A stretch of DNA of 64,000 nucleotides from Candidatus Heimdallarchaeota archaeon (lineage in GTDB: Archaea; Asgardarchaeota; Heimdallarchaeia; Hodarchaeales; Hodarchaeaceae): the NCBI GenBank assembly GCA_011364965.1, contig RDOB01000001.1, positions 1-64,000 on the forward strand. Reading direction: 5' to 3'. A program made the translations under genes and the position numbers. Below, piece by piece: positions 36,853-37,905 of the stretch. The first letter of the stretch is position 1. Each line of letters opens with the position of its first letter. A model generated the notes under the pieces. It ran no database searches. It saw nothing but the letters and a program-made list of their open reading frames with translations, and had not been told where the DNA came from.

Positions 36853-37347
36853 TTATTTGTTTCTAGAAATAAAACTACCAATTTCACAATAATTAAATTC
36901 AGTTTTTCCCTGTTTTCCTACAACTTGATAAATTTTAAAAGGCGAGATTTCATCAGAACCTATTTTAATTGGTTCTATGACTAAGGCTACCGAATAATTA
37001 TTGTGTAATTGAAAAGAATAAATGTGGGTCTCAATATCAGTATTTGAAAGAAATAATCCGTATCCTGGATGAGAATGCCACCAACCCACAACATAATCAT
37101 CTTCATGAAGTATTTTCTCAAAAGCTTGAAAATCCTCTTCTGCAAAAGAAACAGAGGCCTCATCTCCCTCGGTGACGAAAACCATTCTTGTTATCACAAG
37201 CTCATCATTCCTCCTCATTTTCCCTCCTAATAATCCAATTGCTTCTCTAGGTATTGATTTCTTTGATATATCTGAAATTTTCTTTAAGGTGGAATATGAT
37301 ATTGTAACAGATTTGACTTGTTGGGTGAGTATAACAGGTTTTGAAAT
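36853..37347 (-). CDS. JAMM/MPN (Rpn11-like) metalloprotease, candidate deubiquitinase, probable non-ATG start
   Basis: JAMM motif VVGWWHSHPGYGLFLSNTD. The conserved N-terminus (VTISYSTLKKISDISKKSIPREAIGLLGGK) lies upstream of the track's ATG (37218). No ATG/GTG/TTG back to the E2 stop; an ATT at 37347 follows GAGGG. Confidence 0.88.
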   Translation of the reverse strand: MSKPVILTQQVKSVTISYSTLKKISDISKKSIPREAIGLLGGKMRRNDELVITRMVFVTEGDEASVSFAEEDFQAFEKILHEDDYVVGWWHSHPGYGLFLSNTDIETHIYSFQLHNNYSVALVIEPIKIGSDEISPFKIYQVVGKQGKTEFNYCEIGSFISRNK

Positions 37348-37362
37348 TTGAAGTCCCTCATC

Positions 37363-37905
37363 CTATTGAGCATACTTTTGGGTCCACTCGATAGCATTAT
37401 TCCAATATAGGTCAAATTTTTCTCTCATTTGCTTTCCTGCTTCTGGATTAAATGGATCATTAGGATCAACAAGATATTCAGGAAATTCACCCTCTTGTGT
37501 TACCTGATAAACATCTAACATCATCTCTATATGTTCAAAAACACTAGGAAGGGTTATGGTTTCCTTCCATCCTCCTACTTTTCCGATATTATTCCAATTA
37601 ATTAAACTCAGACAAACGTTGGAGCCCCATTTCCATTGAGTTCTCCCGATGGCGATATTCGGATGCCAAATTTGAGTTATGAAGTTTACAATCGGAGGTC
37701 TAAAGGGATATTCTGGGGGTAATTCAACTTTTATTTCCCATTTTCCATTTTCATAAGGAGTCCCAACTTTTCCTTTAATTATTGCTTTATAATGATGGAG
37801 ATTATTGTTGATTATCTGCCATTTGATAGTACTAGTCTTAGGGGGATAAGTTTTCAGCATTCGTTTGAATTCTTCTCTTAATCGGCGAGAATGGAGATCC
37901 TGCAA
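37363..37905 (-). CDS. Ubiquitin-conjugating enzyme E2-like
   Basis: VELPPEYPFRPPIVNFITQIWHPNIAIGRTQWKWGSNVCLSLINWN: UBC fold with HPN and catalytic Cys. Confidence 0.95.
   Translation of the reverse strand: MQDLHSRRLREEFKRMLKTYPPKTSTIKWQIINNNLHHYKAIIKGKVGTPYENGKWEIKVELPPEYPFRPPIVNFITQIWHPNIAIGRTQWKWGSNVCLSLINWNNIGKVGGWKETITLPSVFEHIEMMLDVYQVTQEGEFPEYLVDPNDPFNPEAGKQMREKFDLYWNNAIEWTQKYAQ

What the first reader, a model, noticed from the sequence alone, without database searches (positions are those of the whole stretch)
36853..37905. E2 and JAMM genes are in the same frame, separated by a single TAG, with no standard start codon for JAMM
Seen: after the E2 stop (TAG, 37363-37365) the same frame continues uninterrupted as DEGLQISKPVILTQQVKSVTISYSTLKKISDISKKSIPREAIGLLGGK-M(37218)RRNDELV... 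into the JAMM motif. The 48 codons contain no ATG, GTG or TTG, yet include the conserved MPN N-terminus (PREAIGLLGG). Options: (a) stop readthrough giving an E2-JAMM fusion, coupling conjugation and deconjugation; (b) ATT initiation at 37347, 7 nt after GAGGG; (c) sequence error or a substitution that created TAG.
Basis: partly seen in the sequence, partly recalled or inferred. Interest (0 to 1): 0.8.

Follow-up and report, generated by a model that had tools for sequence, protein, structure and literature searches.

The report
Ubiquitin-cutting gene starts at ATT
In this Asgard archaeon the gene for a ubiquitin-removing enzyme most likely starts at the unusual codon ATT just after the ubiquitin-attaching gene stops, not by reading through the stop, and the organism's whole genus starts several important genes at isoleucine codons that gene-finding programs ignore.

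Summary
E2 ends at TAG 37365-37363, the same frame stays open into an intact Rpn11-like JAMM domain, and 48 codons lack ATG, GTG and TTG. The fusion/readthrough idea is not supported: E2 and JAMM are separate genes in every genus relative that has them, no fused protein turned up in 5.8 billion, TAG is an ordinary stop here, and no PylRS was found. The best explanation is initiation at ATT 37347, 15 nt after the E2 stop, behind a modest Shine-Dalgarno (GAGG). Two findings support it. (1) JAMMs of the three nearest relatives are likewise annotated without the first strand and helix, and form one clade with the window, so the missing start is probably inherited, not an error. (2) The genus (Hodarchaeales) uses isoleucine-codon starts: KEOPS Cgi121 has ATA/ATC/ATT with a correctly spaced Shine-Dalgarno in 11 of 11 genomes; proteasome alpha has ATT exactly where 11 relatives have TTG; phosphopantothenate synthetase has ATT where relatives have ATG. 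A rare ATT start was already proposed for one Asgard tubulin (PMC13394414). Recurrent, conserved isoleucine-codon initiation across a genus looks like a new variant of a known kind. No N-terminal or ribosome-profiling evidence was available.

The parts
37363..37905 (-). E2 ubiquitin-conjugating enzyme gene, TTG start, TAG stop at 37365-37363
   Evidence: UQ_con 5e-24; identical protein on 5 contigs
37348..37362 (-). 15-nt spacer GATGAGGGACTTCAA between the E2 stop and the proposed JAMM start; GAGG (37359-37356) is the Shine-Dalgarno-like core
   Evidence: sequence; a match of 4 nt or more at spacing 2-4 occurs at 7% of random positions
37345..37347 (-). Proposed initiator codon ATT of the JAMM gene (protein MSKPVILTQQVKSVTI...)
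   Evidence: Only near-cognate codon with a Shine-Dalgarno before strand 1; AF2 model is below pLDDT 50 only over frame residues 1-6; ATT/ATA/ATC starts supported elsewhere in the genus
36853..37347 (-). JAMM/MPN+ deubiquitinase-like gene (Rpn11-like), 164 aa from ATT
   Evidence: JAB 4e-14; Rpn11 and the Caldiarchaeum Rpn11 homologue are the best PDB matches; E40, H96, H98, S106, D109 intact
37216..37218 (-). First in-frame ATG, the start used by the annotation of P0001; too late to make a complete domain
37359..37361 (-). Out-of-frame ATG just after the E2 stop; its own frame is short and it has no Shine-Dalgarno (rival: frameshift or indel)
31348..31908 (-). Cgi121 (KEOPS subunit) gene starting at ATA 31908-31906 behind GGAG; second Ile-codon start in the window
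56238..57326 (+). NMD3 gene starting at CTG 56238 behind GGAGG; third non-standard start in the window

Best explanation
E2 and JAMM are two separate cistrons. The ribosome stops at TAG 37363, and JAMM translation begins at the AUU codon at 37347, 15 nt downstream, guided by a weak Shine-Dalgarno (GAGG) and probably helped by partial termination-reinitiation coupling. The initiator reads AUU as Met, giving MSKPVILTQQVKSVTI... (164 aa) with a complete MPN+ domain. This is one instance of a wider trait: this Hodarchaeales genus initiates roughly 1% or more of its genes at AUU, AUA, AUC or CUG. Shown: sequence, homology, conservation and spacing. Inferred: that AUU is the actual initiator here, the coupling, and low JAMM output relative to E2.
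For: No in-frame ATG/GTG/TTG before codon 49, yet the domain core (strand 18-22, helix 23-35, strand 40-49 with Glu40) lies upstream of it. ATT is the only near-cognate with a Shine-Dalgarno between TAG and the conserved VKSVT, and homology to relatives resumes at KPVIL right after it. The nearest three relatives (P0001 99%, P0002 70%, P0007 66%) are also annotated without the N-terminus and form one clade with the window, support 100/97. Same-genus support for Ile starts: Cgi121 has ATA/ATC/ATT with GGAG or AGGAG at aligned spacing 3-4 in 11/11 genomes, and no standard start there has a Shine-Dalgarno, whereas other families of the class usually have an ATG near the N-terminus of the same gene. 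PsmA has ATT behind GAGGTGA exactly where 11 relatives have TTG. PPS has ATT aligned with relatives' ATG. NMD3 has CTG aligned with TTG in G006 and G007. EndA and two response regulators have domains beginning before any standard start. A GGGP-synthase-like gene has ATA/ATC/ATT in G009, G008, G001, G004.
Against: The JAMM Shine-Dalgarno is only 4 nt, and a match that good occurs at 7% of random positions. Global enrichment of Ile codons at Shine-Dalgarno-spaced positions in startless frames is weak (12 seen, 7 expected; 5 seen, 1.5 expected at the stricter cut), because that frame set is noisy. DNA of P0002 and P0007 could not be read, so their lack of a standard start is inferred from annotated proteins. 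No ribosome profiling or N-terminal peptides.
Confidence: 0.8

Rival explanations
1. TAG readthrough makes an E2-JAMM fusion, with or without free E2, coupling conjugation and deconjugation.
For: Same frame and no standard start.
Against: No fused E2-JAMM protein among 5.8 billion; separate genes with ATG JAMMs in the genus genomes; the sister species' E2 (P0091) ends at the same residue; TAG ends 58/237 long ORFs; no PylRS hit; residues just after TAG are disordered in the model.
Confidence: 0.05
2. Start at the out-of-frame ATG 37361 followed by a one-base frameshift, either a sequencing/assembly indel or programmed shifting, giving MRDFKFQKPVIL....
For: One extra A in CAAAAC would join the frames, and G006 starts its JAMM near this point.
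Against: That ATG has no Shine-Dalgarno and there is no canonical slippery heptamer; a distinct strain and two more species also lack an annotated upstream start, so an error would have to recur.
Confidence: 0.08
3. Another near-cognate codon of the frame initiates (for example ATA 37332 or a later Ile codon).
For: Several Ile codons lie in the first 37 codons.
Against: ATA 37332 has no Shine-Dalgarno in the sequence; later ones cut into the ordered domain.
Confidence: 0.05
4. JAMM truly starts at Met 37218, or the gene is decaying.
For: Annotated so in P0001.
Against: This loses strand 1, helix 1, strand 2 and catalytic Glu40, although all motif residues and the upstream coding signal are kept.
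Confidence: 0.02

Closest known systems
AUU start codons of E. coli infC and pcnB (own knowledge)
   Same: AUU initiator behind a Shine-Dalgarno on a cellular gene
   Different: Isolated bacterial cases, with autoregulation for infC; here several genes and conservation over an archaeal genus
Proposed rare ATT start of Kariarchaeaceae tubulin AtubA (PMC13394414, 2026)
   Same: Asgard (Heimdallarchaeia) gene whose annotation lacks strand 1, with ATT plus a plausible ribosome-binding site upstream
   Different: One gene, reported as rare; not linked to a lineage-wide practice
Archaeal Rpn11-like JAMM proteins (Caldiarchaeum Rpn11 homologue, 6fnn/6fju)
   Same: MPN+ fold and JAMM motif
   Different: Non-standard start; short N-terminus; only about 29% identity
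Stop-codon readthrough or pyrrolysine TAG genes
   Same: In-frame TAG between two open coding regions
   Different: Homologues are not fused, TAG is a normal stop, no PylRS

Membership tests
JAMM/MPN+ metalloprotease | E-x(n)-H-x-H-x7-S-x2-D motif | tested here: met
   E40, H96, H98, S106, D109; the H, S and D columns invariant and E nearly so across 21 homologues; E missing if started at 37218
JAMM/MPN+ metalloprotease | Rpn11-like fold | tested here: met
   AF2 pLDDT 87; Rpn11 4o8x E 1e-12, Caldiarchaeum 6fnn TM 0.83 by target
JAMM/MPN+ metalloprotease | Isopeptidase activity on a Ub-like protein | not testable with these tools
   needs an enzyme assay
E2 conjugating enzyme | UBC fold with HPN and catalytic Cys | tested here: met
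   UQ_con 5e-24; WHPNI and NVCLSL present
Shine-Dalgarno-led Ile-codon (non-AUG) initiator | No standard start before the conserved N-terminus | tested here: met
   first ATG/GTG/TTG at codon 49
Shine-Dalgarno-led Ile-codon (non-AUG) initiator | Shine-Dalgarno at the spacing used by other genes | tested here: inconclusive
   GAGG at aligned spacing 3, the genome's commonest, but chance 7%
Shine-Dalgarno-led Ile-codon (non-AUG) initiator | The organism uses such starts in other genes | tested here: met
   PsmA, Cgi121, PPS, EndA, response regulators, by homology and spacing
Shine-Dalgarno-led Ile-codon (non-AUG) initiator | Met-initiated peptide at that codon | not testable with these tools
   needs proteomics or ribosome profiling
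Stop readthrough / Pyl recoding | Fused homologues or recoding machinery | tested here: not met

The most novel reading that the evidence does not exclude
A whole genus of Hodarchaeales, close Asgard relatives of eukaryotes, keeps AUA, AUU and AUC as fixed, evolutionarily conserved initiator codons on housekeeping genes (KEOPS, proteasome, lipid and CoA synthesis, ubiquitin system), either to hold their output low or because start-codon proofreading is relaxed; current annotation of these genomes is systematically truncated at such genes.
Probability: 0.6. Interest if true: 0.7.

Novelty: new variant of a known kind. Interest (0 to 1): 0.57.

Why it matters
Start-codon choice in archaea is described as AUG, GUG or UUG (review PMC7531240). 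Conserved isoleucine-codon starts in an Asgard genus would make archaeal start-codon proofreading directly testable with natural substrates, and would explain N-terminally truncated annotations of eukaryote-like genes such as JAMM, proteasome alpha and tubulin. It also removes a tempting but unsupported story of an E2-deubiquitinase fusion.

Tried and rejected
Fusion: searched the protein collection with the TAG read through; no hit covers both halves. Pyrrolysine: no PylRS match. Altered initiator tRNA: the intron-bearing tRNA with anticodon CAT that I take for the initiator (C16:52555) looks ordinary. aIF1 is present and similar across the genus, so no cause of the relaxed choice was found. 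A purely statistical test of Ile codons at Shine-Dalgarno spacing in startless coding frames was weak, so I relied on orthologue alignment instead. A G000/G009 orthologue comparison of 138 pairs left Cgi121 (both genomes) and JAMM as the cases I read as truly startless; most others flagged have a standard start just inside the aligned region, and a few are unclear. The first genome-contig scan with the single protein found nothing. DNA of the P0001, P0002 and P0007 contigs could not be reached because no metagenome scan was allowed.

Full report
What is there. The E2 gene runs 37905-37363 on the minus strand and ends in TAG (37365-37363). The same frame is open for 169 codons down to the stop at 36853. 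Codons 1-48 after the TAG hold no ATG, GTG or TTG. E2 is a UQ_con protein with the HPN motif and the catalytic cysteine; the downstream frame is a JAB/JAMM protein. A Ub-like gene ending in GG (38965-39288) and a ThiF-type E1 (39315-40565) lie next to them on the other strand. The genome (16 contigs, 2.97 Mb) belongs to a genus of Hodarchaeales/Heimdallarchaeia, judged by its named relatives, such as Candidatus Hodarchaeum mangrovi.

Not a fusion. In ten other genomes of the genus JAMM is a separate gene. In nine, it starts at an ATG 16-96 nt after the E2 stop, in any of the three frames relative to E2; in the tenth (G007) the contig begins inside E2. A search with the stop read through found E2s and JAMMs but no protein covering both. 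TAG ends 58 of 237 long ORFs. No PylRS was found. The exact E2 protein occurs on five contigs, and the E2 of a sister species (P0091, 87% identical) ends at the same residue.

Not a late start and probably not an error. An AlphaFold model of the frame is confident (pLDDT 87, pTM 0.84). Strand 1 is at residues 18-22, helix 1 at 23-35, strand 2 at 40-49 with catalytic Glu40, and the one stretch below pLDDT 50 is residues 1-6. Starting at Met 37218 (residue 49) would remove all of that. Yet the annotated proteins of the nearest relatives do begin late: P0001 (99% identical, one residue different, so another strain) at that Met, and P0002 (70%) and P0007 (66%) inside helix 1. Every other homologue with the full domain has at least 38 residues before the Glu. 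These three plus the window form one clade with support 100/97. The simplest reading is that the whole clade lost the standard start codon and gene callers fell back on an internal Met. I could not read the DNA of those contigs, so this step is inference.

Where it starts. Between the TAG and the conserved VKSVT there are two near-cognate codons, ATT 37347 and ATA 37332. Only ATT has a Shine-Dalgarno: GAGG-GACTTCAA-ATT, aligned spacing 3, which is the commonest spacing for ATG genes of this genome. A match that good is found at 7% of random positions, so it is supporting and not decisive. Homology to relatives begins right after it (KPVIL against PPVLL or LPVEL), and the disordered part of the model ends there.

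The genus really uses isoleucine starts. A coding-potential scan of 1.2 Mb of this genome and 0.4 Mb of G009 turned up genes whose conserved N-terminus precedes every standard start. Four were followed by orthologue comparison across the genus. Proteasome alpha: ATT TTT TCT CCT AAG behind GAGGTGA, where all eleven relatives have TTG at the same position. Cgi121 of KEOPS: ATA (9), ATC (1) or ATT (1) in 11 of 11 genomes, each with GGAG or AGGAG at aligned spacing 3-4. In four of them an in-frame TTG lies upstream, but no standard start in any of the eleven has a Shine-Dalgarno. Outside the genus the same gene usually has an ATG near its N-terminus. Phosphopantothenate synthetase: ATT ACT CTA behind GAGGTG, where G007 has ATG ACT CTA and most others an ATG nearby. 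NMD3: CTG behind GGAGG, aligned with TTG in G006 and G007. In addition, a tRNA endonuclease and two response regulators have Pfam domains starting before any standard start, and a GGGP-synthase-like gene starts at ATA, ATC or ATT in G009, G008, G001 and G004. Counting only homology-supported cases, including JAMM, gives about 8 of 910 coding frames, a lower bound near 1%.

How it most likely works. The E2 ribosome terminates at TAG. The 15-nt spacer carries a weak Shine-Dalgarno and AUU serves as initiator with the ordinary CAU initiator tRNA. In Haloferax a 13-14 nt distance leaves about 40-60% of termination-reinitiation (PMC10666635), so partial coupling is plausible. A weak start would keep the deubiquitinase below E2. 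The coupling and the dose effect are inference. No change in the initiator tRNA or aIF1 that would explain a relaxed choice was seen.

Known or new. Single AUU starts are known in bacteria (infC, pcnB; own knowledge), and a rare ATT start was proposed for an Asgard tubulin on the same kind of argument (PMC13394414). The archaeal initiation review consulted speaks of AUG, GUG and UUG (PMC7531240). Paper searches for AUU/ATT starts in archaea found nothing systematic, in a library that lacks most subscription journals. The JAMM itself is an ordinary Rpn11-like enzyme by fold and motif. What looks new is the recurrence and conservation of isoleucine-codon starts in one Asgard genus. The limits are clear: computation only, no protein or ribosome data, and a modest Shine-Dalgarno at the JAMM itself.

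Noticed in passing
31348-31908 (-): Cgi121 (KEOPS) starts at ATA 31908 behind GGAG; an Ile-codon start is conserved in 11 of 11 genus genomes holding the gene.
   Followed up: yes
56163-57326 (+): NMD3 starts at CTG 56238 behind GGAGG; relatives G006 and G007 have TTG at the aligned codon.
   Followed up: yes
62185-63897 (-): 571-codon coding frame whose first standard start is codon 61; it begins TAA ATT CAT GGA with no evident Shine-Dalgarno; no Pfam match in its first 170 residues.
   Followed up: partly
G000:C13:163010-163735 (-), in L142: Proteasome alpha subunit gene starts at ATT where 11 genus relatives have TTG.
   Followed up: yes
38965-39288 (+): Ub-like protein ends exactly in GG, so it needs no C-terminal trimming before E1 activation; this bears on whether the JAMM acts as processing enzyme or as deconjugase.
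   Followed up: no
36027-36887 (-): ORF overlapping the JAMM 3' end, with a hydrophobic segment and no Pfam match, directly downstream in the same direction.
   Followed up: no
G000:C1:56179-57389: A second E2 plus JAMM pair in the same genome, present in the genus as a separate paralogous locus.
   Followed up: no
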